Origin: Dendrophyllia cribrosa
Lineage: Eukaryota; Cnidaria; Anthozoa; Scleractinia; Dendrophylliidae
Length of the DNA: 64,000 bases
Assembly (NCBI GenBank): GCA_024195265.1
Contig: JAJLRJ010000002.1
Location: 22,849,236-22,913,235, forward strand
Reading direction: 5' to 3'
A program made the translations under genes and the position numbers. How positions within the stretch are numbered: position 1 is the first letter of the stretch; each line of letters begins with the position of its first letter. Shown one piece after another: positions 4,293 through 26,489 of this stretch. The notes under the pieces were generated by a model. The model searched no databases. It had not been told where the DNA came from and saw only the letters and a program-made list of their open reading frames with translations.

Positions 4293-4697
4293 AGTAGAAG
4301 GGATATCACGGACTCCAATGCATCCTCGGACCCCGTTAATTTTAACGTAAAACACTTCTGCTTACTTATACACATTAGTAAATTATATGACTCGATTGAT
4401 CCTTTATGTTAAAACCACCAGAACTCAATAAAAATATTTCAGAAACTCATTTGTCATTTTCTCCTAAAATTTAACAGCATCTCCAAATGCTAACTTTCTG
4501 TCTAAATTTACCAGAGACATATTTTCATTGATTGTAAAAGTGCCATTTCATTTTCCTGTCAAATCATTACATATTCTTACTATTTGATTTAAGTATTTAT
4601 AAGACATAAAACCTTTGAATTAAGGGGGTCCTTCGGATCCATTGGAGTCCGTGATATCCCTTCTACTGTCTCAAAAAATATTGGGGGACCAAATATT
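4293..4697 (+). repeat. Left terminal inverted repeat of Polinton 1
   Basis: This pairs with 26490-26894. Inside it the outermost 28 bases (4293-4320) recur in inverted form at 4640-4667, so each terminus contains its own internal palindrome of about 375 bp. Beyond 4697 the two ends stop matching. Confidence 0.9.
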
Positions 4698-4799
4698 CTA
4701 TCTGTAGATAGATTTTAGAAAAGTTTTTTTCTCCAGTTTCTGGAGAGATTAAAAAGTTTTCTCCAGGAGAAAAGTTTTCAAAAACTGGGTGAAAAGATC

Positions 4800-5110
4800 A
4801 GATCAAAATTCTATCTGCAGATAGAATATTCAGTTGACAAAAATTCTATCTGCAGATAGAATATTCAGTTGACAAAAATTCTATCTGCAGATAGAATATT
4901 CAGTTGACAAAAATCTATCTGCAGATAGATTTTTAAAAAGTTTTTTTCACCAGATTCTGGAGAAAAAAACTTTTCTCCAGGAGAAAAACTTTTCAAAAAA
5001 CTGGAGAAAAAAACTTTTTAAAATTCTATCTGCAGATAGAATATTCAGTTGACAAAAATTCTATCTGCAGATAGAATATTCAGTTGACAAAAAATCTATC
5101 TGCTGGAAAT
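4800..5110. repeat. Subterminal tandem repeat with palindromic core
   Basis: Units of about 34 bp built as TTCTATCTGCAGATAGAA (a perfect palindrome) plus TATTCAGTTGACAAAAA recur in two clusters, interrupted by A/T-rich 'ctccag' hairpin-like sequence. The stretch 4698-5340 holds no gene other than these repeats and one larger hairpin. A binding-site array near the element end is one possible role. Confidence 0.75.
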
Positions 5111-5115
5111 AAAAA

Positions 5116-5248
5116 GTTGACAATCAGGAAGGTTACATATTTGATTTTTAAAACTTTTTTATTTTGAAAAAAGTTTTTGATTTTCCAAACTTTTTTTCAT
5201 TTTGAAAAAAGTTTTAAAATCAAATATGTAACCTCCCTGATTGTCAAC
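5116..5248. repeat. Intergenic hairpin, copy A
   Basis: GTTGACAATCAGG-AAGGTTACATATTTG at the left is mirrored by CAAATATGTAACCTCCCTGATTGTCAAC at the right (shown in parts; arms about 35 nt) around an A/T-only centre. Two further copies lie at 20118-20250 and 20679-20811. Confidence 0.7.
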
Positions 5249-5340
5249 TTTTCATTTAGAATTCTGGTTGACAAAATCATTTCCAAAAAAAACTGGTTGA
5301 CAAAATATTTTCTCCAGAAAAAGTTTCTCCGGAAAAGAAA

Positions 5341-5964
5341 ATGTCTGATTCCGAAGATGAAGATGAGGAAATAGATGACACTCCTGAAATTATTCAAGAA
5401 ACATATACAACAACATGGCATTCTCACAAAAATCTCAGACTTGAACATTTCAAAGTTGTCATCCGAAAAAATCAGGGGAAGAACCAAATTCCACTTAAAG
5501 ATCTTGAATTTTATCAAAAAGAAATTCTCTCCCAAATTCCCCTCCATGAAATCACCAGAAAAAAAGTCAGGGAGTTTGTTAAAGCTTCCAAATGGAAAAA
5601 AGTCAATGGCAACGATCATGAAATTTTCAATCACATAACAAATCACGATGGAAATGACTATGAATATCTGGAAAAGTTTCTCATTGACGATTTTAAATAT
5701 TTCTCACTGACATATGATGATCTTCATCCAAACAGAAAAAAGTTTCTCAATTTCAATCAAGTTCTTTTCTCCCTTCTGAAAAAGAATGGTTTCAATCCAA
5801 ATGAAGATGATTTCAAACTGTTGGTTCTCCCATCAAGAAGGGTAGAACAAGAAAAAATAATCCAAACCATCTTCAAAAAAAAACAAATGGAAAGAAAATG
5901 GAAGCCAGTGACCATGAAGATTGCCTCACTTGCTCAGAGGAGGAAGAAAGGAGCGGAGCAATGA
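5341..5964 (+). CDS. VLTF3-like late transcription factor (probable)
   Basis: This is a 207-aa protein with a strongly acidic N-terminus (residues 2-13, Ser/Asp/Glu), a basic middle and a basic C-terminus. Residues of about 125-180 (HPNRKKFLNFNQVLFSLL, then LPSRRVEQEKIIQTIFKK) resemble the C-terminal helical region of poxvirus VLTF3-type factors, which occur in nucleocytoplasmic large DNA viruses and some Polintons. The zinc-ribbon cysteines expected at the N-terminus of that family are absent. If correct, it would direct element-encoded late transcription, which fits the uniform TAAAATG start motif across this element. Its stop overlaps an internal ATG of the next frame (ATGA at 5961-5964). 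The family call rests on pattern recall only. Confidence 0.45.
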   Translation: MSDSEDEDEEIDDTPEIIQETYTTTWHSHKNLRLEHFKVVIRKNQGKNQIPLKDLEFYQKEILSQIPLHEITRKKVREFVKASKWKKVNGNDHEIFNHITNHDGNDYEYLEKFLIDDFKYFSLTYDDLHPNRKKFLNFNQVLFSLLKKNGFNPNEDDFKLLVLPSRRVEQEKIIQTIFKKKQMERKWKPVTMKIASLAQRRKKGAEQ

Positions 5965-6200
5965 GCGGAGCAATGAGCGAAAATGAAACCCCAACAACAT
6001 CTGACGAAGAATTTATTGTCTCTGATTCGGAGATGGAAGAAGCAGAGCAAAATGAAGAAGAGGAAGACACAATAGAACTCCTCTTTGAATCATTTGTCAA
6101 CCTCCAAGAGGAACACAAGATTCTCAAAAATGATCTCCAAAAACAAAGTTGTCTCCTCTGGGAAATCCACCAGGGATTGAAAGAAAGCAAAGCAAAGTGA
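5898..6200 (+). CDS. Small acidic coiled-coil protein
   Basis: This is a 100-aa frame overlapping the preceding gene. An ATG at 5898 opens it, but a second ATG at 5961 overlaps the upstream TGA as ATGA, the coupling used elsewhere in this element, so the true start may be 5961. Residues 10-55 are rich in Ser/Glu/Asp. Residues 60-95 (LLFESFVNLQEEHKIL..) look like an amphipathic coiled coil. I do not recognise a family. It faces the convergent integrase gene across 64 bp. Confidence 0.5.
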   Translation: MEASDHEDCLTCSEEEERSGAMSGAMSENETPTTSDEEFIVSDSEMEEAEQNEEEEDTIELLFESFVNLQEEHKILKNDLQKQSCLLWEIHQGLKESKAK

Positions 6201-6264
6201 AGGCGCAGCCCGCGTGAAGCGGTGTTTTGGAATGAATATGAATGTTGAACATTCATATTCTGTC

Positions 6265-7221
6265 TCAGAGATTTTCCACATCACTCAGTGGAACCCAAGA
6301 ATTGAATTTATCGGGATATCCTTTCCATTTAACCAAGGCTTTCTTTTTCTTCTGGTCGCGGCGAATAACCTTTTCAATGCGAAACACGCTTTGGTTTGTC
6401 CTTTGGAGTTCCGCCTCGTAAAATGATCCAGTTATTTTTTCTCCCAACAGATCGACTAACCTATACGTCGGAGGATTTGTGTTCAAAACCTCGTCGACGA
6501 CAAATATCTCCTCTGTCCAGTTCGGGGTGAAACCTTTGTCGAATATCTTTCGTTTGTATTTTGAAATTCGGACTTTGTCACCGACTTTGAATTTTGCTGG
6601 GTTGTGTTTAGCATAAATCATGTCGCCGAAAAGATTAGCAAAAACCTTTGTTTCATTTTTCTGTTTGCTCGCCTCTGCGGGTGACATCTTAATGCTTGAA
6701 TGATAAGTGTTATTATATTGATCCACTAACCTGTCCAGTTTGTCAAAGAAAATTGTATTATTGTTAGCAGAAAACATCCGGAAGAGTTTCTCTTTCATCG
6801 TCTTGTTCCAACGTTCAACCACAGATGACTTTTCTTCGTTCTCTGTGGTATACAATTTTATCCCATTCAAGTCAAGGAGATCCTTCATAGTTCTATTGAA
6901 AAATTCACTTCCTTTGTCTGTCCAAAGCATCTTCGGTTTTCGTTTCGCAAATATGGATTGGAAAGCATCGGCAACTGTTTGTCCCCGCTTGTCTTTCAGG
7001 GGGTGAATCCAACCGAACTTTGAGAAAACATCGATCACCATCAGGAGATATCTTATTCCCTTGTTTCACTTTGAAAATTTCCCCATCTCAACCAGATCAG
7101 CCGCCCAGATGTTGTCAATCCCATACGCAATGACTTTTCGTTTTGGAAATCTTCTCCTTATCGGCTGGTGAAGTTCATTTGCCAGATTTTGAGTCCAGCC
7201 TTCACTCAAAATCTTTTCCCG
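6265..7221 (-). pseudogene. INT: Retroviral-type integrase with C-terminal chromodomain (one in-frame stop)
   Basis: The rve integrase catalyses element insertion. The first catalytic Asp lies in WAADLVEM, the second in LWTDKGSEF, and the Glu in VVERWNK. An SH3-like region follows (KFKVGDKVRISKYKR), then a chromodomain (VFRIEKVI..ALVKWKGYPDKFNSWVP) at the end. A TGA at 7066-7068 stands where element 2 has a TGG Trp codon just after the first Asp. The flanks stay in the same frame, so this is a single nonsense change. No ATG sits at the natural N-terminus: the frame enters from the PLA2 gene at the slippery site 7221-7227. An out-of-frame ATG at 7320 exists but encodes a shadow of PLA2. Confidence 0.9.
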
Positions 7222-7227
7222 TTTTTT
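7163..7227 (-). promoter_or_regulatory. Predicted -1 ribosomal frameshift signal, PLA2 to integrase
   Basis: On the minus strand the PLA2 frame reads CCA AAA AAC GGG, giving the heptamer A_AAA_AAC (7227-7221). After a 6-nt spacer, AGATTTTGAGT (7214-7204) pairs perfectly with ACTCAAAATCT (7194-7184). The loop hexamer GGCTGG (7200-7195) pairs with CCAGCC (7168-7163), making an H-type pseudoknot with stems of 11 and 6 bp, a 3-nt first loop and a 15-nt last loop. A -1 slip enters exactly the integrase frame. Element 2 has the same arrangement with different stem sequence. Confidence 0.85.
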
Positions 7228-7901
7228 GGGGCACCAAATCCAGCGGAGCGGGTCGAGGCGAAGCCGAGACCAAGTTTTTGTTTTGCGTTGATTGTGTTTC
7301 TTGCAAAAGTATGTCCCCATTGTCTTTCTGCCCAGGGAATAGCATCCAATGCGGCAACCATTTTTCTGTCTGCTTTGTTTTTACATTTGCGTGGGTCTGG
7401 TTTATTTGCACAGACTGAATAATCAACGTCATGCTGCATAGAAACTGCATCTGTTTTTCCAGTTGGTTGTTGCCAGATTTCCAGAATTTCCCCAGTGTTT
7501 GGATCATAACTCAATTGTGTATTTAGCGGGTTATATGGCCCTGTATAATTATGTCCGGGGAGAGTGAATCCTCCTTTTGGTCTGGGAAGTTTTCCTATCA
7601 AAGCATGAGCATCGATCCCACGGCCGGATAAGGGATCTAATTTCTTTGAAATGTCACTTGTAAATGCGTCCAATGCTTGATCAAGATATTTATTCACCGC
7701 ACCTTTAATTTTTTGTTTGGCAAAATCTGATTTAACCGCTTTGGATAATCCAATGCGGCCAAGATTAGTCAATCCTTTCACGCCGCTTTTTAAGGCAATT
7801 TCACCGAGTGAATGACTGTCGGCTATATCGAAAAAGCCCCCACCTTGTGAGGGCAGACTCAGTTTCCCTGTTTCACGAACCTTGTTTTTTTAATTCCGCA
7901 T
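7206..7901 (-). pseudogene. Virion phospholipase A2-domain protein (stop at codon 4)
   Basis: This is about 230 aa. A basic helical N-terminal region is followed by a parvovirus-VP1-like PLA2 core: calcium loop LPGHNYTGPYN, catalytic HD in MQHDVDYSVC, and the supporting Asp in KNKADRKMV. Such domains breach endosomal membranes during entry. The ATG equivalent to element 2's start lies at 7899-7901 inside the Zn-ribbon gene, but codon 4 is TAA (7890-7892) where element 2 has AAC. The rest is open. No later ATG precedes the PLA2 core by a convincing margin, so expression is doubtful unless another start is used. The 3' end carries the frameshift signal into integrase. Confidence 0.8.
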
Positions 7902-8008
7902 GAAGCGCAATGGCAGAAAAACATCTTTCTCCCATTTTTTGCAGTCATATATCCGGATGGTTTAACGCAACCAGTGACTTTTTTTTCTTTGACGCAATAT
8001 GATTCCAT
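7859..8008 (-). CDS. Small Zn-ribbon protein, DUF5679-like
   Basis: This is a 49-aa protein starting at ATG 8006-8008, preceded by TTAAAA. It has Cys at 5 (SYCVK), 14, 32, 34 and 37 (CHCASCG), followed by KTRF. The layout (YCVK..K..GRKM..C..CG.K..RF) resembles DUF5679 zinc ribbons of large DNA viruses. It overlaps the PLA2 start in another frame. Element 2 encodes a 53-aa homologue at 59643-59804 in the same relative place, and conservation across the two diverged elements supports a real gene. Confidence 0.75.
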   Translation of the reverse strand: MESYCVKEKKVTGCVKPSGYMTAKNGRKMFFCHCASCGIKKTRFVKQGN

Positions 8009-8010
8009 TT

Positions 8011-8517
8011 TTAATTGAAATAATCTTTTATGAATTTCTCATTTTGCATTGTGTCAGTCAAACTGAAAGGTTGGAGAATATCATAGAAATCTTTCCCCTG
8101 CGACCATTGATGCAGGAAGAAGAGGCAATAATACCCGCAGAGAACACTGTTTATGTTTTGATATTGACTGCTGTTCCAAATTACAGGTTTGGAACTTTTA
8201 AATTCGAGAGGATAGCCCATTCCAAAACTATCAAAATACCATAAGAATTTTTTATCATGCGATGGGACGCAACAAACCCAATGAGTTCCTGCATTCTCGA
8301 ACGAATCAAGATTGATGATGCATGGGCTGTGTTTTTTGGGTATAGCTTCATCTCTTGCAAATATTCCTTTGAAATTGGGAATCCCCAGATATTCAATCCA
8401 ATTCAACAGATCAATATTTGACAGCGGTTTAATTACAAATTTAGGTCTCACAGAAGTGCCCCGAGAATTGGAATGCTGTTGAATGGACTTTTCGATCCCA
8501 GCAGAAGTCCTTTGCCC
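8011..8517 (-). CDS. PRO: Adenain-like maturation cysteine protease
   Basis: This is an adenovirus-protease/Ulp1-fold protease that would cut virion precursors. Visible catalytic elements are His in GTHWVCC, Asp in WYFDSFGMGY and Cys in SVLCGYYCLFF, in that order. The frame is open upstream to about 8589 but contains no ATG before the catalytic His: the first Met follows the catalytic Asp. It overlaps the end of the pVI-like gene in -1, so the coordinates here start at the codon reached by a -1 slip at 8517-8523. Element 2 has the protease fused in frame to its pVI-like protein. Confidence 0.85.
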   Translation of the reverse strand, partial: GQRTSAGIEKSIQQHSNSRGTSVRPKFVIKPLSNIDLLNWIEYLGIPNFKGIFARDEAIPKKHSPCIINLDSFENAGTHWVCCVPSHDKKFLWYFDSFGMGYPLEFKSSKPVIWNSSQYQNINSVLCGYYCLFFLHQWSQGKDFYDILQPFSLTDTMQNEKFIKDYFN

Positions 8518-9335
8518 TTTTTTGATTTTTTTTTTCCCATTCCAACAGAGTTCCTCCAACTTCCAATGAATGGAGGAGGTCTTGCCCAAGGAGTTCCCAG
8601 TCTGGGGGCACCTTTTCCAGAGGTCGCTCCGCTCCCTTTTGGTCGTCCAACTCTGGGGGCACCTTTTCCAGAGGTCGCTCCGCTCCCTTTTGGTCGTCCA
8701 ACTCTGGGGGCACCTTTTCCAAACAGGTTTTTCACCATATCAAGCGCAAGTGGAATTCCAATGGATGCCAGCATTGTTCCCAACAATCCACCAGATTGTG
8801 TTTTGGTTGGTTTCACAACAACCTGTCCTCCTGATTGCAGGGCAGTTAAAATATCCTGTTTCTGTTTATTTGTCAACAAATGTTTATTGTCAATCAGTTT
8901 CTGAATTTTATTTTGGGGGATGAGAAACCCACCCACTTGGCCAGCTCCCTGATGCGCTCCTTTTCCGCTGATTGATTTCACAACTTGACTCGCTCCTTCA
9001 CTCGCCAAACCAGCAAGTGCTGATAATCCCAGTGTTTTAGCTAGGGTTGGTGCAAGTGTTTTGGCAAAAGGAACAATAGCAGAAAATAGACTTCTACCTT
9101 GTTTCATTACTTTTCTGATTTGTGTTTTTGTTATCTTAATCTCAACTCCATTTCCCAGAGATTTTGCTTTTGCGATTCTTTTAATTTGATTGGCTGTCAG
9201 CATCAGTTCATCATTTCCACTTGTTTGATTGTTTTTCAATCTCAGGTTGATAGGCATGTTTGTTCTGAATGCTCTTCCAAGCTTTTGTTTTTGCCCTTTA
9301 GACAAATTTACTTTATACGGGTGATATGTTGTCAT
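8448..9335 (-). CDS. pVI-like membrane-active virion protein
   Basis: This is about 295 aa, starting at the ATG at 9333-9335 (an earlier ATG at 9350 lacks homology to element 2). A hydrophobic Gly/Ala/Leu-rich segment (TLAPTLAKTLGLSALAGLASEGAS) sits at about residues 85-110 (quoted in part as TLGLSALAGLASEGAS), with a second (LLGTMLASIGIPLALDMV) near 185-205. Basic Gly/Lys/Arg repeats (GKGAPRVGRPKGSGATS) follow, then the shared motif RPPPFIG. Adenovirus pVI has similar amphipathic and precursor character, but this is an analogy. A 51-bp unit is duplicated within it. The C-terminus (LLLGSKSPFNSIPILGALL) overlaps the protease frame, and the same dual coding survives in element 2. Confidence 0.65.
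   Translation of the reverse strand: MTTYHPYKVNLSKGQKQKLGRAFRTNMPINLRLKNNQTSGNDELMLTANQIKRIAKAKSLGNGVEIKITKTQIRKVMKQGRSLFSAIVPFAKTLAPTLAKTLGLSALAGLASEGASQVVKSISGKGAHQGAGQVGGFLIPQNKIQKLIDNKHLLTNKQKQDILTALQSGGQVVVKPTKTQSGGLLGTMLASIGIPLALDMVKNLFGKGAPRVGRPKGSGATSGKGAPRVGRPKGSGATSGKGAPRLGTPWARPPPFIGSWRNSVGMGKKKSKKGKGLLLGSKSPFNSIPILGALL
8474..8523 (-). promoter_or_regulatory. Candidate -1 frameshift signal, pVI-like protein to protease
   Basis: The pVI-like frame reads TCA AAA AAG GGC, giving A_AAA_AAG (8523-8517). Six nt later GGACTT (8510-8505) pairs with AAGTCC (8490-8485), and TGCTG in the loop (8503-8499) can pair with CAGCA (8478-8474). An upstream run of ten A (8526-8537 region) could also slip. 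A -1 slip leads straight into the protease, which has no usable ATG. Confidence 0.55.
8602..8703. repeat. Perfect 51-bp tandem duplication
   Basis: Starts at 8602 and 8653 carry identical 51-bp units, with a third partial unit from 8704. They encode the repeated basic segment GKGAPRVGRPKGSGATS of the pVI-like protein and keep its frame. Confidence 0.9.
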
Positions 9336-9358
9336 TTTTAATGATAACATATGTTTTC

Positions 9359-9390
9359 GCTCCGCTCCGCTCCGCTCCGCTCCGCTCCGC
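9359..9390. repeat. GCTCC pentanucleotide run after capsid gene
   Basis: Six copies of CGCTC lie between the pVI-like start and the capsid stop. Related GCTCC/GGAGC strings recur in other gene joints of this element (5952-5970, 8630-8690, 10738-10772). Confidence 0.8.
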
Positions 9391-9391
9391 T

Positions 9392-9949
9392 TTAGGCAAT
9401 GACCAGCTCATTTCCAACTTTATCAATCTTAGCTGTTTCCTCATAAAGAACGACTGCATGCACATGGAAGGCTGCAGCTGCATTGGCATTCAGCGTATAT
9501 CGAAATATCAACTGCTTGGGGTCTCGTGTTGGTTTTTCAGCTTGGTAAGACAAGTCGAAATAAATGAGGCCGAAGAGTGATTGAAAGTTAGCCAATTTCA
9601 ACTGAGTACCAGTGTTGAAGTCATTTTTCCTCATTGCATAAGCCATGACATCATTGAAGATTCTGACTTTTGATTCTGTGTCATAATCAGTTTCAGGATA
9701 AAACACTCCATTTCCATACTCCAATCTGCAAGTTGACAGGGATGAGTTTGCATTTGCTGCATTCAGCTTGAAAGTGTCAAAGAGATATGGGTTATCTTCT
9801 GCATGGTCATCATTGGGTGGAGCTGCTCTTTTCAGCCAGACAAAAATATGCTTTACATTGTCAATGCTCGCTGAATTCTGGAAGAATCCTGATGATTGTG
9901 TAGGAGGTGATTGATCATATATCTCCCTCAGATATTTCCATTGCGATTC
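9392..9949 (-). pseudogene. MCP: Major capsid protein, C-terminal half
   Basis: This is the second part of the double-jelly-roll capsid protein. From the stop at 9950-9952 the same frame continues open to 9392 with SPPTQSSGFFQ.., VKHIFVWLKR, LEYGNGVFYPET, KVRIFNDVMAYAMRKND and TRDPKQLIFRY, all mirrored in element 2. Its first ATG (9722-9724) is well inside the domain, so it has no natural start of its own. It ends GNELVIA. Confidence 0.85.
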
Positions 9950-10651
9950 TTAAAGAGAATCTTTTGGTGTCAATCTCGGCACCCAAAGCAAAAATCGATT
10001 CACCACAACTCTTTCAGGATCTGTGCCATTTGCCATATGAATCAATTCATCATCCTGTTGAAGATTAATTTCGAATTGCAGCTGCATTGGGACCAACATC
10101 CTATCTTCCAGTTCCTCGAAAAAGGAGAAACGATTCAGGGGGATAATTGCATTAACATCTTTTGCCCCTCCAGTCCCATTGTCTCGAACTGCTTGAGTTT
10201 GCAACCGTCTCGCTTCAAATCCTGTGTTATTCGCAGCTGTTGTCGCATTCACATCCAAATACCAGAAACTGTTTTTTGCGACTGATCTGCTGAAGTCATC
10301 TGAGTATTCCAATAGATTTTTAACAAAAGTAACTTTATGCAGATTGTCAGGTTCGTAAACAATCTTCCCTGCAGATCTGATTGTCATGTGTTTTATCAGG
10401 GAATGTGAACCATTTATCACTGTTATCCTATCAGCAGCAGCATATCCAGCACCATCTGCTAATTTCTGGAGTTGAAATTGCACTTCAAAATAAGCGTTAT
10501 GCCAGTCATAAAACGCTGATCTGTCATTGATGGTGAATTTATAAGCATTTTTTGCTTGATGTTGCCCATTTGCTGGGGCTCTGATAACATCATCCAACTG
10601 GAATCTTACTAATTCATTTCTTTGGAGATATTCATTCGATCGAAAAGCCAT
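9950..10651 (-). CDS. MCP: Major capsid protein, N-terminal half (ends at in-frame TAA)
   Basis: This is 233 aa from ATG 10649-10651 (motif ATCAAAATG), opening FRSNEYLQRNELVRFQLDDV. It builds the capsomer with the C-terminal half. The sequence is close to element 2's 61666-62430 and ends LLWVPRLTPKDSL followed by TAA at 9950-9952. The reading frame resumes directly after that stop. The break falls near the middle of the protein, about where one jelly roll should give way to the next, and element 2 is interrupted at the same place by a frame change. Either both copies are damaged at a weak point or the two halves are made separately. Confidence 0.85.
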   Translation of the reverse strand: MAFRSNEYLQRNELVRFQLDDVIRAPANGQHQAKNAYKFTINDRSAFYDWHNAYFEVQFQLQKLADGAGYAAADRITVINGSHSLIKHMTIRSAGKIVYEPDNLHKVTFVKNLLEYSDDFSRSVAKNSFWYLDVNATTAANNTGFEARRLQTQAVRDNGTGGAKDVNAIIPLNRFSFFEELEDRMLVPMQLQFEINLQQDDELIHMANGTDPERVVVNRFLLWVPRLTPKDSL

Positions 10652-10665
10652 TTTGATAGATTATT

Positions 10666-11097
10666 TTAAATTCCTTGACCACTGATCAGTCTATTCAGGA
10701 TGTCAGTTGCACTTTCTCTCTGTGGTTGTTTCACAGGGAGCGAAGCCGAGAGCGAAGCAGGGAGCGAAGCCGAGAGTGATTGTGGTTTTCGTCCTCGTTT
10801 CACATTTGTTGATGGTTTTTTTCCAATCTTCATGTTTCCCAGTTTTTTCATGATCAAATCACCTGATTTTTCAACTGCCATTTTGCCCACTTTTTCTCCA
10901 GCGTGAGAAATTCCTGCGTCCAAAGCTTTTTTCGCAAATGGTTTCGCAACTTTTTTCAGAATTCCTTTCATGGCTGGTCCTGCCATCTTTTTCAGTGGCT
11001 TGAAGATGGAATCAAAAATGATGCCTGTTCCTTTATGTTTATAAACAAACTTCCCCAGTTTGGGGTGATAAACTCGAGAAAATTCATATGCTTTCAT
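10666..11097 (-). CDS. Basic core-like virion protein
   Basis: This is 143 aa, starting at ATG 11095-11097 after TATAA. A conserved N-terminus (YHPKLGKFVYKHKGTGIIFD) is followed by a Lys-rich helical region with KKALDAGISHAGEKVGKMAV, then a Ser/Leu/Pro low-complexity insert and the C-terminal motif ATDILNRLISGQG. Element 2 has a 139-aa homologue in the same position. The basic, Ala-rich sequence between two capsid genes suggests a DNA-binding or capsid-lining role. No family is recognised with certainty. Confidence 0.7.
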   Translation of the reverse strand: MKAYEFSRVYHPKLGKFVYKHKGTGIIFDSIFKPLKKMAGPAMKGILKKVAKPFAKKALDAGISHAGEKVGKMAVEKSGDLIMKKLGNMKIGKKPSTNVKRGRKPQSLSASLPASLSASLPVKQPQRESATDILNRLISGQGI

Positions 11098-11098
11098 T

Positions 11099-11857
11099 TT
11101 ATAGTCTTTTTTTTAATATCAACGAGAATGCTGTGTCTGCTCCATTCAAGTTGACAATTCTTCTTTTCCCGTCTGTGATATAGATTCGAATTGAGCTGAT
11201 CGTGTTTTTATTCACAGGGCAGAATGCTATTTTTATGGGTTCACGCTCAAAACTATATGATGCCTGCAGAACAGATGTGGAAAAGGAATAGATGATGTCA
11301 GTCTCTTCCCCATCCACAAGTGAATTATTTGTCAGATCACAATGAATGTTCAACATATAAGTATCTTGACTGAGGTTTGGAACTCTGGGACCAAGATTAA
11401 CTTTCTCCTTCAGAATCTTTTTATCAAACCCTACAAGCTCCCCGAAATTCGATTGGGTGAAATCCAGTTGATAATTTTCAGCCAATGTGATTGTCACTCT
11501 GAAAGTTTCATTGCTGAAGGCAAGATTGATTGGAAAAACATCTTTTTTTCCAGATTCTTTCACCACTGTTGCTCCCCGAATGAAATCATTTATCCCAGAA
11601 TACCCCCAAACCCCAGCAGGAAACGCAATATCGGAAAATGTTTTCCCACCATCAGAGGAAAACCTGATCAGTTGATTTTCATATTGTGGATTGATGTTAT
11701 ACCACGTAAAACTCATATTGATAATTCGTTTCAGCCCAACAACATATTGTTCATTCGGATCAAGAATAATTTGACGATTAAATTTTGTTGTGAAATCTGC
11801 AGGTTTGTTTTGTCTGTTCTTAACGGCGTAAGATGATAGGACGATTTCTCTTTCCAT
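11099..11857 (-). CDS. Penton-like minor capsid protein
   Basis: This is 252 aa from ATG 11855-11857 (ATAAAATGGAAAGAG), chosen over an upstream ATG at 11893 because element 2 also starts MEREIVLSSY. It is beta-rich with a predicted single jelly roll. Conserved patches are RQIILDPNEQYVVGLKRIINMS, FRVTITLAENYQLDF, LGPRVPNLSQDT and SSIRIYITDGKRR..NLNGADTAFSLIL. Polinton minor capsid proteins occupy fivefold vertices. It abuts its neighbours by one or two bases. Confidence 0.8.
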   Translation of the reverse strand: MEREIVLSSYAVKNRQNKPADFTTKFNRQIILDPNEQYVVGLKRIINMSFTWYNINPQYENQLIRFSSDGGKTFSDIAFPAGVWGYSGINDFIRGATVVKESGKKDVFPINLAFSNETFRVTITLAENYQLDFTQSNFGELVGFDKKILKEKVNLGPRVPNLSQDTYMLNIHCDLTNNSLVDGEETDIIYSFSTSVLQASYSFEREPIKIAFCPVNKNTISSIRIYITDGKRRIVNLNGADTAFSLILKKRL

Positions 11858-11858
11858 T

Positions 11859-12848
11859 TTATGGTTTGAAATAGTTTTTGAACAGCTTTTCATGCTGGGA
11901 TTTGTTGATAACTGACTCTTTCAGGAGAAGATCAAGAATGCCCACTCCAGTGTTTCTGATTGCCAGATTTGTGTTTCCAGCATTGATGGAGCCAATGATT
12001 ACCTCAAGTTTTTTGAGAAGTTCTTTGGGATTGGAGAACAAGCGGATAGCTCCACCTTTTTTTCTTCTTTTCAACCCAGAACCCTGAAATGTTTTTGTTT
12101 TCTTTGTGTAATGTTTTATGTAATCATTCAGAACTTTGAAGGAACGATCTATTCTTTGATGTTGAAAATTCTTTTGCTCTGCAGTTATTTCTCCTTTGTT
12201 GAACTTTTTGGTAAAAGAAGCTTTGTAACCTTTTAATTGGTTTCGTGTATGTTCTGCCTTGAAAAGAATGTGTTTCTCAAGATAGTTTTTTTTCTGTGTT
12301 GCTGATAAATTCGGAGTTCTCAGAACCATATCCACTGTATCATAACTGAAAATATCCAGGTTATCTAGAATCTTGTTAGTGTCCGTTGTACTGTCTTCTT
12401 CTGTTTCATCACCCGGTGCTAAAGCATAATCAGGAGATTCATCTTCTTCATATGGAGGTGGGTCATCTCCTACCTCTTGCTGTAGTTCTTCTGCATAGAT
12501 TGGAGGATTTGCTGGGATTTGTTTAGCTGCTTGCGGCGCAACAATCTCATCATCAAACAAACCGCCAACATCCATCTCTTCAAATGGATCGACTTCTGGG
12601 TAATAATCTATGCCTGGTTTTTCTCCAACGACTTTCTTTTTCCTCCGAACTGGCAAAGCTGGCTGCCTCAAATTCGACGCAACAACCTCATCTAGTTTTG
12701 CTGTTATGGGACGGAACATTTTTGCTAGTCCAGTTTGGCTTGTTTCTTCACCCAACTTTTTCTGGGTGATGACATCGTGAACAAAGTTGATTTTTTTACC
12801 CAAAGCAGATTTGCTTTTGGCCATTTCATTCCATTTCAATAAACTCAT
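11859..12848 (-). CDS. Virion-associated protein with PPPY late-domain motif
   Basis: This is about 329 aa, starting at ATG 12846-12848 in TTAAAATGAG. There is a basic N-terminus, then an acidic and Pro-rich linker containing DDPPPYEEDE (a PPxY motif of the kind that recruits Nedd4-family WW domains), and a helical basic C-terminal third ending GVGILDLLLKESVINKSQ... Element 2's partial homologue at the window edge shares RIDxxxxxLNxYIKHY and the end. It is the first gene of the leftward virion operon, opposite the ATPase across an 82-bp divergent spacer. Confidence 0.6.
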   Translation of the reverse strand: MSLLKWNEMAKSKSALGKKINFVHDVITQKKLGEETSQTGLAKMFRPITAKLDEVVASNLRQPALPVRRKKKVVGEKPGIDYYPEVDPFEEMDVGGLFDDEIVAPQAAKQIPANPPIYAEELQQEVGDDPPPYEEDESPDYALAPGDETEEDSTTDTNKILDNLDIFSYDTVDMVLRTPNLSATQKKNYLEKHILFKAEHTRNQLKGYKASFTKKFNKGEITAEQKNFQHQRIDRSFKVLNDYIKHYTKKTKTFQGSGLKRRKKGGAIRLFSNPKELLKKLEVIIGSINAGNTNLAIRNTGVGILDLLLKESVINKSQHEKLFKNYFKP

Positions 12849-12930
12849 TTTAAGTCCACAAACATGAATTTGGATGAAGAACATGATGTTGAACAAGATG
12901 TTCATCTGAATTTGTCTTCTGGGAAATAAA
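12849..12930. promoter_or_regulatory. Divergent promoter region between virion operon and ATPase
   Basis: An 82-bp spacer separates leftward and rightward starts. TTAAAATG abuts one start and AAATAAAATG the other, matching the element-wide start motif. No other signal was seen. Confidence 0.5.
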
Positions 12931-13563
12931 ATGAAGATTCCAAATTATGATTGCCATGACCCAATCACAAACTTTCGACAGTTGCAACCTTTTATGCCGG
13001 ATCGAACTTTCAGAATGTTGATCTGTGGTCCTTCAGGATCTGGAAAAACAAACGTTCTCCTGGATATGATTTTGAGATTGCTTTTCTACGATAAAATCTT
13101 CCTCTATGCGAAAAATCTGGACCAAGCCAAATATCAACATCTTCTGAAAACATTTCGCCCAATCAGCAAAGAAGCTGGATATAACATCGTGGAAGCATCC
13201 CAGGATGAAATCATCCCAGTTTCGGAATTATCTGGGGAGAATCAAAAACTGGTTGTTTTTGACGATTTTGTTTGCGAAAAGAATCAAAAGCCATTGATTG
13301 ACTATTTCATCCGGGGCAGACACAAGAATTGTTCTGTGATTTATCTTTCACAAAGTTATTTCCAAACACCAAAAGATATCCGACTGAATTGCTCGCATCT
13401 TTGCATCTTTGAATTTCCAAGCAACAAAGAAATTACTGCGATCTGCAGGGAAAACAACATCAAGAAAGAAGATTATCTGAAAGCCACGCGTGATCCGTTT
13501 TCTTTCCTCTATGTGGATAAACCAAGGAAATTCATGGCTAAAAACTTTGATGAAAGACTTTAA
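12931..13563 (+). CDS. ATP: A32/FtsK-HerA type genome-packaging ATPase
   Basis: This is a 210-aa ATPase that would pump the genome into capsids. Walker A is GPSGSGKT at about residues 33-40, Walker B is KLVVFDDFV near 107-115, and a sensor-like YLSQSYF lies near 139-145. It opens MKIPNYDCHDPITNF and ends FMAKNFDERL. The length is typical for the Polinton family. TAA at 13561-13563 is followed by the fibre start at 13565 in the string TTTAAAATG. Confidence 0.92.
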   Translation: MKIPNYDCHDPITNFRQLQPFMPDRTFRMLICGPSGSGKTNVLLDMILRLLFYDKIFLYAKNLDQAKYQHLLKTFRPISKEAGYNIVEASQDEIIPVSELSGENQKLVVFDDFVCEKNQKPLIDYFIRGRHKNCSVIYLSQSYFQTPKDIRLNCSHLCIFEFPSNKEITAICRENNIKKEDYLKATRDPFSFLYVDKPRKFMAKNFDERL

Positions 13564-13564
13564 A

Positions 13565-15451
13565 ATGAGCTACTCAAATGGATTGCTTTCTGAAACAACA
13601 AGCACTTCTCGAGGGGGTCGAGATGGAAGAGATGGATTGCCAGGAGTTGGTTTTAAGCTGACATCCACAGGGGATTATGACATGTCAAACAGAAAACTGG
13701 TCAATGTCGCTGAAGGAACAGCAAATGGTGATGCAGTCACAAAACATCAAGTTGACTCGTTGAAAAGCAGTGTGGAAACCAAACTAATTCAACTGAGAGC
13801 AGATTCTTTGCAGGTTGATGGTTCTTCCCATATGACTGGAGATCTGGACCTCAGGGGAAAGAAACTGATTCTTCCCGGTGAAATTGACATGGATCGAAAG
13901 TTGATCACAAATCTGGATACTGATGAATCAAATGATCTTTCTGCGGTGAACATGGTGACGCTGAAAAAATATCACCCAAATGCTCCAGCACCAACGCATG
14001 AGGTAACAAAAGATATTGACTTGAAAGGACTTTTCCATGTCACGCATTCAAAGCAACAAACTTTTGATGACCTGTCAGTGAACTATAACAATCTGATCTC
14101 TTACAATGATGGAAAGAATGTTTTTGTCAGCCGAAAAGAAACATTCCCAATGGAAACAAGTTTGGATATGGGAAATCAATTCATTTATAACGTGAAAGAT
14201 CCAATAGCAATCGATCAAGCAGCCAATAAAAAATATGTCGATCAACATGTCACACAACTTACCTCATCAATTAGGTTTGTGGCCTCAGATACTCTTTCTC
14301 TTTCCGGAGGAACAATGACTGGGGAATTGGATATGGGAGGAGAAAAACTTGTTGGTCTTCCCGATCCAAAAACATCCAATGAAGCAACATCAAAACAATA
14401 TGTCGATACACAGTTAAATAACAAGACAGTAGCTCTGGCAGAGGAACTGATCAAAACAGAAGCTGACCTTAAAAAATATGTCAATGAATCGCATATATCT
14501 TCAACCTCCCACTTGAAGGATGAATTCCGGTATTTGATGGAGGATGTGGGTGAATCCAGAGCTGAACATAATATAACAGTGACTGGTTCGTCTGATTTTA
14601 CAAGTTCACCCCATCAGATCAATAAAAAAGCGTATGATTTGAAAATAACAAAAGATGTTTTCAATGAATACTCTGGGAGACTTGGTTTCCATATGCTGAA
14701 GCTTCCAGAAGGGGAATATACGATTTGCATTGAATTCTTCCCCGCTTCCATGACGGGTGTGAGCGTTGACGTGGTTTCGACCAGCTTGAATATCAATCAA
14801 CAATCAACGAAGAAGTTTTCCAACTATTCTCGATCAATCATTCACATGCATAAATGGCAGATTTCTCCACCGGAGTTCATTTATTTGGATTTGAAATGGC
14901 AAGGAACAGCATCATCAGCTGATCAAGGTCCAGCAAATCTGATTATTTATGGCGTTAAAGGTTCTCAATCAGATGTGCCAAGTTCTGTTTATGATGCTCC
15001 TTTCGTTTTTGACTCGGGGAAGATGGTCATGGAAACTGATTTGGATATGAATGGGCAAAAGTTGTTGAATTTCACGCCTAAATCCAGATCAGTCATTTTA
15101 GCAAAATACGATAACAGCAAAAATGACCATTATCTCTTCTTTTCAGCTGACGAACCAAACGAGGTAAATCGTCAGGCATTGGGTTTTGATGTTAAAATCA
15201 TCCAAATCACTCTTTATGTTTATAACAGTGTTGGAAACATAGACCCTAATCAAATTCAAATGACTTTATACACCAGGATTCCAGGAGGTAACGTTTTCAA
15301 TAAAGTAGTAACTCTTTCCTCTTCCCCACATTCAAAGTCACTCGTATTCTCTTTCGACTCAACTGTTCCTAAAGAAAGAGATTTTAGTTTCCACCTGTTC
15401 CATAATGGTACAATTATCAAAGCAAAAACAACAGTTCTCATTGAAATATGA
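13565..15451 (+). CDS. Trimeric fibre-like protein with collagen stub and phage tail-fibre repeats
   Basis: This is 628 aa from ATG 13565 (after TTTAAA), preferred over the overlapping upstream Met. A short collagen-type stretch (GGRDGRDGLPG) is followed by repeated phage tail-fibre units of the form MTG-ELDMGG-KLVGLPDP-x-ATSKQYVD, visible near residues 90, 205, 255 and 500. A beta-rich region without clear similarity lies at about 330-480 and a beta-rich C-terminus ends the protein. By analogy it is a receptor-binding or structural fibre. It overlaps the next gene by ATGA (15448-15451). Confidence 0.7.
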   Translation: MSYSNGLLSETTSTSRGGRDGRDGLPGVGFKLTSTGDYDMSNRKLVNVAEGTANGDAVTKHQVDSLKSSVETKLIQLRADSLQVDGSSHMTGDLDLRGKKLILPGEIDMDRKLITNLDTDESNDLSAVNMVTLKKYHPNAPAPTHEVTKDIDLKGLFHVTHSKQQTFDDLSVNYNNLISYNDGKNVFVSRKETFPMETSLDMGNQFIYNVKDPIAIDQAANKKYVDQHVTQLTSSIRFVASDTLSLSGGTMTGELDMGGEKLVGLPDPKTSNEATSKQYVDTQLNNKTVALAEELIKTEADLKKYVNESHISSTSHLKDEFRYLMEDVGESRAEHNITVTGSSDFTSSPHQINKKAYDLKITKDVFNEYSGRLGFHMLKLPEGEYTICIEFFPASMTGVSVDVVSTSLNINQQSTKKFSNYSRSIIHMHKWQISPPEFIYLDLKWQGTASSADQGPANLIIYGVKGSQSDVPSSVYDAPFVFDSGKMVMETDLDMNGQKLLNFTPKSRSVILAKYDNSKNDHYLFFSADEPNEVNRQALGFDVKIIQITLYVYNSVGNIDPNQIQMTLYTRIPGGNVFNKVVTLSSSPHSKSLVFSFDSTVPKERDFSFHLFHNGTIIKAKTTVLIEI

Positions 15452-15954
15452 ATTCTTCTCAAAAAATGAAAACAGATAAACAAAACATTTTCGATTTCAT
15501 CTACATTGACCCCAACATTGAGGAAGAAAAACTGAAAGAGATCAAGCAATTCTTCCGATTCTATCACAAAAGATTTTGGTGTTTGAAAAGAGCTCACAAA
15601 CATTTCAAGCGAATGAATTTGTTTGTGAATTTGACGTCGTCCGCTCTTGTTGCGATTGGCGCAATTGCTGGAGGAGTGACAATGATTCCTGTGATTTTAG
15701 GAGTGATTTCAGGTGCAGGACTGATCATCAAAACAGGGAATGAAATGAAGAAATATGACAACAAGATTGAAATAACAAAGTTTGCTTTCACAACCTATGA
15801 GAAAACATTGACTGATCTGCGTTTTGCTTTGAGTAGTGGAATATTTGATCGAGATGAATTTCTTCCAGCAATGATAGCAGTTGATGGGATTGTGATTGAT
15901 TTGGGAATTGATCTTGAAAAGTTTAAGAGAAAATATGATAAACACTTTGAATAA
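15448..15954 (+). CDS. Two-helix membrane protein
   Basis: This is 168 aa with a start overlapping the fibre stop, suggesting coupled expression. A charged N-terminal 50 residues is followed by a hydrophobic hairpin (LFVNLTSSALVAIGAIAGGV and MIPVILGVISGAGLII) at about 54-90 and a charged helical C-terminus (FAFTTYEKTLTDLRFALSSG). I do not recognise a named family. Proteins of this shape next to fibre genes could anchor or assemble the fibre or form a holin-like pore, but that is inference. Confidence 0.6.
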   Translation: MNSSQKMKTDKQNIFDFIYIDPNIEEEKLKEIKQFFRFYHKRFWCLKRAHKHFKRMNLFVNLTSSALVAIGAIAGGVTMIPVILGVISGAGLIIKTGNEMKKYDNKIEITKFAFTTYEKTLTDLRFALSSGIFDRDEFLPAMIAVDGIVIDLGIDLEKFKRKYDKHFE

Positions 15955-18885: not shown

Positions 18886-19147
18886 AATGGGGTTAGTTTC
18901 TAGAGAAACTGTGGTGCTGCGTCGGTGGGGGGATGAAACACGAGAATTTAGTTTTATCGACTGAGTCGATAAGGTAAATTGACCACCGTAAAAAGATTCA
19001 AATAGCTGACGTTTCGAGCGCTAGCCCTTCGTCGGAGCGAATCGATTCGCTCCGACGAAGGGCTAGCGCTCGAAACGTCAGCTATTTGAATCTTTTTACG
19101 GTGGTCAATTTACCTTATCGACTCAGTCGATAAAACTAAATTCTCGT
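18886..19147. mobile_element. Hairpin insertion related to Penelope-type repeats
   Basis: A 262-bp foreign segment sits in the Glu/Thr-repeat array. It is flanked by a 13-bp duplication, GGTTCTGTTTCTG, at 18873-18885 and 19148-19160, which the array itself could mimic. From 18939 to 19148 it is a perfect inverted repeat with arms of 105 bp centred on CGAATCGATTCG. Each arm holds GACGAAGGGCTAGCGCTCG then AAACGTC, a string resembling the hammerhead motif of Penelope-like elements, with one core base changed. Confidence 0.65.
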
Positions 19148-19725
19148 GGTTCTGTTTCTGTTTCTGGAATGTCAACTGGTTCTTTTTCTGTTTCTGTTTC
19201 TGTTTCTGGAATGTCAACTGGTTCTTTTTCTGTTTCTGTTTCTGTTTCTGGAATGTCAACTGGTTCTTTTTCTGTTTCTGTTTCTGTTTCTGGAATGTCA
19301 ACTGGTTCTTTTTCTGTTTCTGTTTCTAGAATGTCAACTGGTTCTTTTTCTGTTTCTGTTTCTGTTTCTGGAATGTCAACTGGTTCTGTTTCTGTTTCTG
19401 GAATGTCAACTGGTTCTGTTTCTGTTTCTGGAATGTCAACTGGTTCTGTTTCTGTTTCTGGAATGTCAACTGGTTCTGTTTCTGTTTCTGGAATGTCAAC
19501 TGGTTCTTTTTCTGTTTCTGTTTCTGTTTCTGGAATGTCAACTGGTTCTTTTTCTGTTTCTTTTTCTGTTTCTGTTTCTGTTTCTGTTTCTGTGAAAGGA
19601 AGATGCTTTGGAAATGGAAATGGAGATGGCTCTGTTTTCATGAACTCTTTTAACTTTTCAATGACAACATCCCATTTTTCTTGAGGCCAAGGATCCATCT
19701 TTCCTGGAAGATATTGTATATTCAT
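19148..19725 (-). pseudogene. Glu/Thr-repeat protein, N-terminal part
   Basis: Start ATG 19723-19725 opens MNIQYLPGKMDPWPQEKWDVV, then a Pro/Phe stretch (SPFPFPKHLPF), then TETETE and PVDIPETE repeats. The frame runs into the hairpin insertion and stops at 19123. It lines up with the repeat body at 15923-18885, whose frame differs because the insertion plus duplication is not a multiple of three. Confidence 0.55.
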
Positions 19726-20002
19726 TAACTCCCCTTGGAGAATATTCAAAAATCGCAACTTCTTTCGCCATCTTCTGGCGTCTTGTTTTGGGCTTTGGCT
19801 TTGATTTGGGCTTTGGTTCAGGAGAAAGATCATCTTTAACCACTTCCAGTTGTCGCCCATCTTTCAAAGTGAATTTGTTTTTCCCCTCTTTCAAAACTCG
19901 ACATAAATATTGTCTGGTTAATTCCATATGAGGAGAGAGAGCAGAAATCGATTTCCCTGATGCCACTGTTTCTCCAGTTATCATGTTAATCAGATTCCAC
20001 AT
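19658..20002 (-). CDS. Small HTH-like protein
   Basis: This is 114 aa from ATG 20000-20002 (TATTAAAATG). Residues 1-50 (MITGETVASGKSISALS.., LTRQYLCRVLKEGKNKFTL) look like the short helix-turn-helix modules seen in NUMOD-type DNA-binding proteins. A Lys/Pro-rich segment (EPKPKSKPKPKTRR) follows. The last 35 residues overlap the start of the Glu/Thr-repeat gene in another frame, and a +1 change would join them, so this could be the true N-terminus of that protein. Confidence 0.45.
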   Translation of the reverse strand: MWNLINMITGETVASGKSISALSPHMELTRQYLCRVLKEGKNKFTLKDGRQLEVVKDDLSPEPKPKSKPKPKTRRQKMAKEVAIFEYSPRGVNEYTISSRKDGSLASRKMGCCH

Positions 20003-20883
20003 TTTAATAGGGGAAAAAAGTTGACAAAAAAAACTTTTTTTTGTCAACCAGATTTCAGAAACTTTTTGTCAACCAGATTTCTGGAAAACTTTTTTGTTTC
20101 CAGATTGGAAAATAAAAGTTGACAAACAGGGAGGTTACATATTTGTTTTTCAAAAAGTTTTTTTGAGAAAAAACTTTTTGGTTTTCTCAAAAAACGTTTT
20201 AAAATAAAAACTTTTGAAAAAATAAATATGTAACCTCCCTAATTGTCAACTTTTATTTTCCAGATTGTCAACTTTTTTGTTTCCAAAAAGATCTTTTTGT
20301 CAACCAGATTTCAGGAAAATGATTTTGTCAACCAGATTTCAGAAACTTTTTGTCAACTTTTTTGTTTCCAAAAAGATCTTTTTGTCAACCAGATTTCAGG
20401 AAAATGATTTTGTCAACTTTTTTGTTTCAAAAAAGATCTTTTTTGTCAACCAGATTTCAGAAACTTTTTGTCAACCAGATTTCAGAAACTTTTTGTCAAC
20501 CAGATTTCAGGAAAATGATTTTGTCAACCAGATTTTCTGCTCCAAAAATGATTTTGTCAACCAGATTTTCTGCTCCAAAAATGATTTTGTCAACCAGATT
20601 TTCTGCTCCAAAAATGATTTTGTCAACCAGATTTTCTGCTCCAAAAATGATTTTCTGTTGTTAGGAGGGATATAAAAAGTTAACAAACAGGGAGGTTACA
20701 TATTTGTTTTTCAAAAAGTTTTTTTGAGAAAAAACTTTTTGGTTTTCTCAAAAAACTTTTTAAAATAAAAACTTTTGAAAAAACAAATATGTAACCTCCC
20801 TAATTGTCAACTTTTATTTTCCAGATTGTTAACTTTTTTGTTTCCAGATTGGAAACAAAAAAGTTGTCAATCAGATTATATCC
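20003..20883. repeat. Gene-free repeat region: TTGTCAACCAGATTT repeats and two hairpins
   Basis: About fifteen copies of TTTTGTCAACCAGATTTC followed by AGGAAAATGATT, or by TGCTCCAAAAATGATT, fill 20040-20650. Hairpin copies B (20118-20250) and C (20679-20811) match hairpin A at 5116-5248, including GGAGGTTACATATTTG and its complement. The open frames here are repeat translations, not genes. A replication or regulatory centre is possible. Confidence 0.8.
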
Positions 20884-21812: not shown

Positions 21813-21834
21813 TTTCTTGGTGGAGATAAAAAAA

Positions 21835-26470: not shown

Positions 26471-26489
26471 TTTTTCTCCCAGTTGAAAA

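What the first reader, a model, noticed from the sequence alone, without database searches (positions are those of the whole stretch)
7163..7227. Gag-pol-like -1 frameshift pseudoknot producing integrase from a PLA2 virion gene (element 1)
Seen directly: slippery A_AAA_AAC in the PLA2 frame, a 6-nt spacer, a perfect 11-bp stem (AGATTTTGAGT/ACTCAAAATCT), and a loop hexamer GGCTGG complementary to CCAGCC 15 nt past the stem. The -1 frame after the heptamer is exactly the integrase frame, whose natural N-terminus has no ATG. Established: this heptamer, spacer and H-type pseudoknot geometry is the canonical eukaryotic viral -1 frameshift signal. Inference: Polintons of this group make integrase as a minor PLA2-integrase fusion, which would put integrase inside virions. 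I know of no description of this for Polintons. Caveat: an ATG in the integrase frame at 7320, overlapping PLA2, could be an alternative start, and this copy has stops in both genes.
Basis: partly seen in the sequence, partly recalled or inferred. Interest (0 to 1): 0.93.

Follow-up and report, generated by a model that had tools for sequence, protein, structure and literature searches.

The report
Double ribosomal frameshift making transposon integrase
A virus-like jumping gene in an animal genome appears to make its DNA-inserting enzyme the way some retroviruses do, by having ribosomes slip back one base at two set points so that a few copies of a small zinc protein are extended into a lipid-cutting enzyme and then into integrase.

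Summary
It is no quirk of one copy. In the window's own genome 146 of 156 scored PLA2-integrase junctions are in -1, and all 146 hold a slippery heptamer in register: 133 AAAAAAC, 12 TTTAAAC, 1 AAAAAAA. Stem 2 is 6/6 paired in 39 of 39 distinct cores (0 of 2000 shuffles match) and survives a switch of 3' partner. No ATG for integrase in 95 of 127 junctions. Upstream I found a second -1 site: a DUF5679 zinc-ribbon ORF ends in G_GGA_AAC before its stop and PLA2 follows in -1 (in-frame heptamer in 89 of 92); element 1's PLA2 has no upstream ATG. Likely products: zinc ribbon, zinc-ribbon-PLA2, zinc-ribbon-PLA2-integrase, as in betaretroviral gag-pro-pol. Relatives, some named as corals, have PLA2 and integrase in one predicted protein. 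Some lineages' stems do not beat chance. Frameshifting, splicing and packaging were not testable.

The parts
4293..26894 (.). Element 1: full-length Polinton, 410-bp terminal inverted repeats (4293-4702 / 26485-26894, 99%), 6-bp target duplication GCCCGG at 4287-4292 and 26895-26900
7859..8008 (-). Element 1 ORF a: DUF5679-type zinc-ribbon protein, ATG at 8008, stop TGA 7861-7859, 49 aa
   Evidence: (24.1 bits, cut-off 27)
7862..7868 (-). Element 1 slippery site 1, G_GGA_AAC, directly before the stop of ORF a; PLA2 is the -1 frame
7836..7854 (-). Element 1 stem-loop after site 1: GCCCTCAC aag GTGGGGGC, 8 bp with one G-U, 7-nt spacer
   Evidence: coordinates counted from the heptamer
7206..7868 (-). 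Element 1 PLA2 frame (ORF b), from slippery site 1 to stop TGA 7208-7206; no ATG before residue 143
7221..7227 (-). Element 1 slippery site 2, A_AAA_AAC
7204..7214 (-). Element 1 stem 1, 5' arm AGATTTTGAGT
7195..7200 (-). Element 1 stem 2, 5' arm GGCTGG (in the loop of stem 1)
7184..7194 (-). Element 1 stem 1, 3' arm ACTCAAAATCT
7163..7168 (-). Element 1 stem 2, 3' arm CCAGCC
6265..7227 (-). Element 1 integrase frame (ORF c): rve core plus chromodomain, entered by -1 slip; one in-frame TGA at 7068-7066
59643..59804 (-). Element 2 ORF a: DUF5679-type zinc ribbon, 53 aa, ATG 59804, stop TAA 59645-59643
   Evidence: (26.6 bits, cut-off 27)
59646..59652 (-). Element 2 slippery site 1, G_GGA_AAC
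59017..59691 (-). Element 2 PLA2 frame (ORF b); ATG at 59691 overlaps ORF a
59032..59038 (-). Element 2 slippery site 2, A_AAA_AAC
58995..59025 (-). Element 2 stem 1 (AGGAGTTGAGT / GCTGAACTCCT, 10 of 11 pairs) with stem 2 5' arm GATTGG at 59011-59006
58970..58975 (-). Element 2 stem 2, 3' arm CCAATC
58076..59038 (-). Element 2 integrase frame (ORF c), 320 codons open; the frame opens 3 codons before the heptamer; its first ATG is the Met of DLVEM

Best explanation
Three overlapping ORFs (DUF5679 zinc ribbon, PLA2, integrase with chromodomain) are each in -1 relative to the one before. Ribosomes that reach G_GGA_AAC just before the zinc-ribbon stop, and then A_AAA_AAC (in one group of loci U_UUA_AAC) near the PLA2 stop, slip back one base at some rate because a stem or H-type pseudoknot a few bases downstream stalls them. 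This yields an abundant zinc-ribbon protein, less zinc-ribbon-PLA2, and a minor zinc-ribbon-PLA2-integrase fusion. Shown: the frames, the heptamers, co-variation of the site-2 structures, dN below dS in all three frames, the lack of ATGs in most junctions looked at, and predicted proteins in relatives that hold these domains together. Inferred: that the ORFs share one mRNA, that slippage happens, its rates, and that the PLA2 part (a virion-type phospholipase) carries integrase into particles and so into the next cell, as Gag-Pol does.
For: Site 2: 146 of 156 junctions in -1, 128 of 129 -1 entries have the in-frame heptamer with both frames open (AAAAAAC 115, TTTAAAC 12, AAAAAAA 1; two of the 129 are the window's elements entered twice). 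Twelve loci have U_UUA_AAC in place of A_AAA_AAC with one codon fewer and changed amino acids, in the same frame before the same stem. Stem 2 pairs 6/6 in all 39 distinct cores, 234 of 234, shuffle mean 218, maximum 226, 0 of 2000; the 3' partner switches between two places together with the 5' arm (GGCTGG or GGCCGG with [CT]C[AG]GCC; GATTGG or GGTTGG with CCAATC). Stem 1: 144 of 165 pairs over 15 distinct arm pairs, maximum of 5000 shuffles 140; 401 of 429 in register against 52-215 when slid by 1-3. A third lineage has a different 14-bp stem, 13 or 14 of 14 paired in 7 distinct arm pairs, with two double changes that keep pairing. Pseudoknot score matched by at most 1 of 200 protein-preserving shuffles in 8 of 11 clusters (two of the eight are element-1-like). 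In the element-1 cluster 1 of 34 stem sites varies against 23 of 79 others. No ATG in the integrase frame in 95 of 127. Site 1: 92 of 96 entries in -1, in-frame GGGAAAC in 89. dN below dS in all three frames (e.g. element 2 vs L103: 0.103/0.465, 0.114/0.622, 0.097/0.358). By my motif rule 28 of the 120 listed integrase homologues (of 7727 found) hold PLA2 as well; P0041 is one predicted 550-aa protein with DUF5679, PLA2, rve and chromo.
Against: No direct evidence of frameshifting. Both clusters of lineage G3 (spacer 10 nt, or a bulged helix) and the single-locus cluster L105 do not beat protein-preserving shuffles (46, 60 and 41 of 200 as good). Site-1 stems are only modestly better than shuffles in the six sequences tested (6-46 of 500 by energy, 7-44 of 500 by stem score). 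7 of 156 site-2 junctions are in frame and 3 in +1. Element-2-type PLA2 has its own overlapping ATG, and 32 of 127 junctions have an ATG in the integrase frame. Nested folding of element 1 has z only -1.84. Copies are related, so the shuffles overstate independence. All DNA-level junctions come from one genome; viral contigs gave none.
Confidence: 0.88

Rival explanations
1. Integrase and PLA2 are translated separately from their own starts (overlapping ATG by leaky scanning, non-AUG start such as the UUG in stem 1, or reinitiation after the upstream stop); the heptamers are incidental.
For: An ATG in the integrase frame exists in element 1 (7320) and in 32 of 127 -1 junctions; element-2-type PLA2 has ATG at 59691; a UUG lies shortly after the heptamer in elements 1 and 2 and the lineages like them.
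Against: 95 of 127 junctions lack any ATG before the conserved ELH motif; element 2's integrase frame opens 3 codons before the heptamer and its first ATG is the Met of DLVEM; element 1's PLA2 has no ATG before residue 143; the ATG depends on the synonymous choice of the PLA2 Gln codon; the UUG is TCG in the 14-bp-stem loci shown except L120; none of this explains U_UUA_AAC in 12 loci or the stem co-variation.
Confidence: 0.06
2. An intron joins the frames, and the overlaps are splice arrangements.
For: Animal genome; no RNA data were available to exclude it; I do not know whether the one-piece proteins of relatives come from uninterrupted ORFs or from spliced gene models.
Against: Conserved coding comes close to the heptamers on both sides, leaving little room for an intron; heptamers and stems would be unexplained.
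Confidence: 0.03
3. Transcriptional slippage on the A-run, not ribosomal slippage, supplies the -1 frame.
For: A-runs at the junction; another lineage seems to have A9-A11 there with all three frames seen in protein tails.
Against: A6 is short; 12 loci use TTTAAAC; site 1 is GGGAAAC; downstream structure is conserved.
Confidence: 0.02
4. Frame disruptions are decay or assembly error in dead copies.
For: Element 1 integrase has a TGA; a few copies have lone indels.
Against: The same -1 offset recurs in 146 of 156 junctions; 119 of the 125 integrase matches scored have no internal stop; dN is below dS in all frames.
Confidence: 0.01

Closest known systems
Betaretroviral and deltaretroviral gag-pro-pol with two -1 frameshifts (recalled: MMTV gag-pro A_AAA_AAC, MPMV/SRV gag-pro G_GGA_AAC)
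   Same: Three ORFs, each -1 to the last; same heptamer classes; downstream stem or pseudoknot; integrase is the last domain
   Different: A Polinton DNA element; no reverse transcriptase or protease domain was found in these ORFs; the carriers are a DUF5679 zinc ribbon and PLA2, not Gag
Coronavirus-type -1 signal (U_UUA_AAC plus pseudoknot, recalled)
   Same: Heptamer of 12 loci; long stem 1 with 6-bp stem 2
   Different: Different gene context; found as a replacement heptamer inside a transposon group
Predicted -1 sites in adintovirus Penton and Hexon-Adenain genes (PMC11071296; section 16 and the passages found by search read)
   Same: Related animal DNA viruses; -1 frameshift proposed by computation (KnotInFrame)
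   Different: Other genes; what I read names no PLA2-integrase or zinc-ribbon-PLA2 site and no co-variation test
Sf Maverick 1 and 2 CAP (PMC5803895, passages read)
   Same: Maverick/Polinton protein with a parvovirus VP1-like PLA2 domain; INT with chromodomain listed as an ORF of its own
   Different: Passages read report no overlap or frameshift with integrase
Trichoplax MELD virus integrase (P0102)
   Same: DUF5679-like leader homologous to the leader of the PLA2 proteins, then the same integrase
   Different: One protein without the PLA2 domain

Membership tests
-1 programmed ribosomal frameshift signal | X_XXY_YYZ heptamer in the 0 frame within the ORF overlap | tested here: met
   128 of 129 entries; the 19 further -1 junctions, read by eye, all have it, one (L153) behind a PLA2 stop
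-1 programmed ribosomal frameshift signal | Downstream ORF open in -1 from the heptamer, without its own start | tested here: met
   146 of 156 in -1; no ATG in 95 of 127, ATG present in 32
-1 programmed ribosomal frameshift signal | Stem or pseudoknot 5-9 nt downstream, stronger than chance, with co-variation | tested here: met
   Site 2: met in 8 of 11 clusters by score, co-variation; not met in both G3 clusters and L105. Site 1: only modest
-1 programmed ribosomal frameshift signal | Measured frameshifting or junction peptide | not testable with these tools
   No expression data in session
Polinton/Maverick | Viral-type PolB (PF03175) and rve integrase in one element | tested here: met
   PF03175 at 22658-26470 within element 1 (4293-26894) and at 53038-54840 beside element 2's integrase; PF00665 in both
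Polinton/Maverick | Terminal inverted repeats with 6-bp target duplication (recalled as defining) | tested here: met
   for element 1; not looked for in element 2
Polinton/Maverick | Major and minor capsid proteins, packaging ATPase, protease | tested here: inconclusive
   No Pfam match to these among the other ORFs scanned; not followed by fold search
Betaretrovirus-like double frameshift polyprotein | Two successive -1 sites joining three ORFs | tested here: met
   (as sequence layout)
Betaretrovirus-like double frameshift polyprotein | Fusion packaged into particles and cleaved by a viral protease | not testable with these tools
   inference only
Adintovirus | Adenovirus-like Hexon and OTU-bearing PolB (definition as in PMC11071296 section 16) | not tested
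   not examined

The most novel reading that the evidence does not exclude
A lineage of animal Polintons expresses a zinc-ribbon-PLA2-integrase polyprotein by two successive -1 frameshifts, and uses the PLA2 virion protein as a Gag-like carrier so that integrase travels in the particle with the incoming linear DNA; the integrase lacks the extra N-terminal region seen in 40%-identical relatives with their own ATG (L001, L002) and has the PLA2 carrier in its place. Polintons would then share not only integrase but also its dosage and delivery scheme with retroviruses.
Probability: 0.5. Interest if true: 0.93.

Novelty: new variant of a known kind. Interest (0 to 1): 0.86.

Why it matters
If true, a eukaryotic DNA transposon-virus makes its integrase by double -1 frameshifting, an expression logic known (recalled) from retroviruses and RNA viruses. 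It makes the question of whether Polintons form infectious particles that carry integrase directly testable: look for junction peptides, and for integrase in particles. It also warns that reading these elements as broken (stops in PLA2, integrase without a start) can be wrong, and gives a two-site signature to look for in animal genomes.

Tried and rejected
Scans of viral contigs with one integrase, an integrase alignment and a PLA2 alignment gave no relatives; genome contigs gave four distant ones (34-40% identity). Of these, L001 and L002 have an ATG-started integrase with an extra N-terminal region and no overlapping pair like ours that I could recognise; L003 has masked sequence and L004 is frame-broken at the integrase start. 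Rfam has no match above its cut-offs (three chance-level hits). A first dN/dS run gave implausible integrase values for pairs with the window's element 1 and some with element 2, I think because my motif search took a wrong anchor; I dropped the integrase values of that run and re-extracted from the heptamers (where 1 of 10 pairs, with L072, could not be extracted and several silent rates are saturated or undefined). In one search six of 67 distinct windows (14-bp-stem lineage) were left out because their stem has another register, and one codon was skipped in the G3 rows to align columns. In one search, 70 of 166 entries had no zinc-ribbon/PLA2 pair, 60 of them short fetches (L105-L164); of the three -1 entries without a counted heptamer L012 is a mis-detection in a copy where zinc ribbon and PLA2 share a frame, L056 has an early zinc-ribbon stop (GGGAAAC still present downstream), L066 has GGGAAAC but a PLA2 stop. 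Of the four entries counted in frame, L019, L090 and L092 read as one ORF and L100 has an early zinc-ribbon stop. Starrett et al. 2021 on adintoviruses is not held, so I could not check it. Literature absence rests in an open-licence library only. No structure prediction or fold search was run.

Full report
Observation. The PLA2 frame reads A_AAA_AAC at 7227-7221 and stops at 7208-7206; the -1 frame is integrase with rve and chromo domains. The second element in the window has the same layout at 59038 with a different stem sequence.

Is it conserved? The window's own assembly could be searched (627 Mb, 22 contigs). Integrase and PLA2 queries scored 125 and 150 places, lower bounds. I fetched 160 loci (L005-L164), chosen from the best hits of four searches. 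A motif pair (end of PLA2, start of the conserved integrase block) was found in 156; 146 are -1, 7 in frame, 3 in +1 (no pair in L036, L106, L115, L122, of which L106 and L115 look -1 and L122 +1 by eye). In one search (L001-L144 plus the two window elements counted again) 128 of 129 -1 entries have a slippery heptamer in register with both frames open: 115 AAAAAAC, 12 TTTAAAC, 1 AAAAAAA. The one miss, L075, has AAAAAAC but a stop in the integrase frame. Of the 19 -1 junctions, read by eye, all show AAAAAAC in register, L153 behind a PLA2 stop. Without the two re-entries this is 146 of 146: 133 AAAAAAC, 12 TTTAAAC, 1 AAAAAAA. Many of these loci are near-identical copies, so the count is of loci, not of independent events.

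The replacement is telling. In 12 loci the PLA2 tail reads VLN in place of PKN with one codon fewer, and the heptamer is U_UUA_AAC in the same frame in front of the same stem. Protein conservation does not predict that.

Structure. Among 39 distinct cores in one register, stem 2 is fully paired in all 39 (234 of 234; shuffles mean 218.0, maximum 226, 0 of 2000). Its 5' arm GGCTGG or GGCCGG goes with [CT]C[AG]GCC at one place (26 cores), GATTGG or GGTTGG with CCAATC four bases further (13 cores). Stem 1 has 144 of 165 pairs over 15 distinct arm pairs (maximum of 5000 shuffles 140), with changes on both sides at three columns between elements 1 and 2; slid registers pair far less. These shuffles ignore relatedness. 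A separate lineage has a 14-bp stem 7 nt after the heptamer with a loop of 52 nt; 23 loci give 7 distinct arm pairs with 13 or 14 pairs each, two of them with changes on both sides. Against shuffles that keep the integrase protein, the best pseudoknot score is matched by at most 1 of 200 in 8 of 11 clusters; the other three (both clusters of lineage G3, and the single locus L105) give 46, 60 and 41 of 200. In the element-1 cluster 1 of 34 stem sites varies, against 23 of 79 others; 4 of 7 heptamer sites vary there because of the other heptamers.

No start codon. Of 127 -1 junctions 95 have no ATG between the last upstream stop (or fetched edge) and the conserved ELH; 32 have one. In element 2 the frame opens three codons before the heptamer and the first ATG is the Met of DLVEM, past the aspartate that I take, by its rve alignment, for the first catalytic one. 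The ATG at 7320 comes from CAA TGG; copies that spell Gln as CAG have GTG there (translations).

A second frameshift. Reading upstream for the PLA2 start showed an ATG-started zinc-ribbon ORF (DUF5679, just below Pfam's cut-off) that ends in GGA AAC plus stop, preceded by G, so G_GGA_AAC abuts the stop; PLA2 follows in -1. Of 96 entries (94 loci plus the two window elements again) 92 are -1, and 89 of these hold in-frame GGGAAAC, 88 of them directly at the stop. The residues before GN vary (QGN, SGN, ASGN, KSGN, PSGN). In 12 of 14 distinct 48-nt sequences a stem of 8-9 bp follows after 4-7 nt; in the six sequences tested it beats protein-preserving shuffles only modestly. Element 1's PLA2 frame opens 7 codons before the heptamer and has no ATG before residue 143, so a standard ATG start could not make it. 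Element 2 keeps an ATG (59691) as well.

Selection. Pairwise dN is below dS in all three frames, e.g. element 2 against L103: zinc ribbon 0.103/0.465, PLA2 0.114/0.622, integrase (52 codons) 0.097/0.358; L037 against L057: 0.034/0.197, 0.031/0.162, 0.024/0.097. Several other pairs are saturated at silent sites.

Relatives elsewhere. Among the 120 listed of 7727 integrase homologues 28 hold PLA2 and integrase in one predicted protein by my motif rule; more appear with such a protein as query, including annotated proteins of the corals Oculina patagonica and Stylophora pistillata. Whether all are uninterrupted ORFs I could not check. P0041 has DUF5679, PLA2, rve and chromo in 550 aa. Of 120 listed PLA2 homologues 46 end in an xKN tail, and 20 of 120 integrases read KK plus R, Q or the like in the same place, the two readings one expects of A_AAA_AAC; 60 of the 120 integrases begin after that place and say nothing. 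Distant relatives L001 and L002 have an ATG-started integrase with an extra N-terminal region.

Mechanism. The anatomy is that of a -1 frameshift signal used twice. The expected dosage is zinc ribbon > PLA2 > integrase. That PLA2 takes integrase into the particle is an inference from the virion role of PLA2 in parvovirus VP1 (cited in the passages of PMC5803895) and from the Gag-Pol parallel.

Known or new. In an open-licence library I found one paper that proposes ribosomal frameshifting for Polinton-type viruses, PMC11071296: it predicts sites in Penton and Hexon-Adenain (section 16 read; other passages). The other paper with both terms, PMC12567637, uses the term for a tombus-like virus. 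My searches showed no account of a PLA2-integrase or zinc-ribbon-PLA2 site; Starrett et al. 2021 could not be read. Retroviral and coronaviral heptamer assignments are recalled.

Noticed in passing
   Followed up: yes
26362-31902 and 33015-38555: 5541-nt inverted repeat, 100% complementary, 1112 nt apart, containing the right end of element 1; beyond it stretches of element 1's 20-26 kb part are mirrored at 38-44 kb at about 90-100%. Recent inverted duplication or assembly fold-back.
   Followed up: no
53038-57039: Beside element 2's integrase the PolB region is two ORFs (600 and 662 aa) where element 1 has one of 1270 aa; an Endonuclease_7 match precedes PolB in both.
   Followed up: no
13490-18903: In element 1 a 653-aa ORF with weak trimeric-adhesin-stalk and tail-fibre matches is followed by an 850-aa ORF over a repeat array with spacings of 42, 30 and 12 nt; may be fibre-like.
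   Followed up: no
homologous proteins P0140, P0164, P0166, P0268, P0270, P0286 and others: In another lineage the PLA2-integrase junction seems, from protein tails, to be a run of 9, 10 or 11 A read in all three frames (KKKRPKF, KKKTPKI, KKKNAQN fused); slippage of another kind is possible.
   Followed up: partly
P0102: Trichoplax MELD virus integrase carries the zinc-ribbon leader of the PLA2 proteins directly, without PLA2.
   Followed up: partly
PLA2 C-terminus just before slippery site 2: An [LVF]G[LMV]G motif is present in 114 of 120 PLA2 homologues (searched anywhere in the protein, seen just upstream of the variable tail); possibly a processing site.
   Followed up: no
G000, element-2-type copies: 14 integrase copies other than the window's score identically (698.2 bits, 99% identity), which suggests a recent burst.
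   Followed up: no
L079: An insertion with terminal inverted repeats interrupts the PLA2-integrase junction.
   Followed up: no
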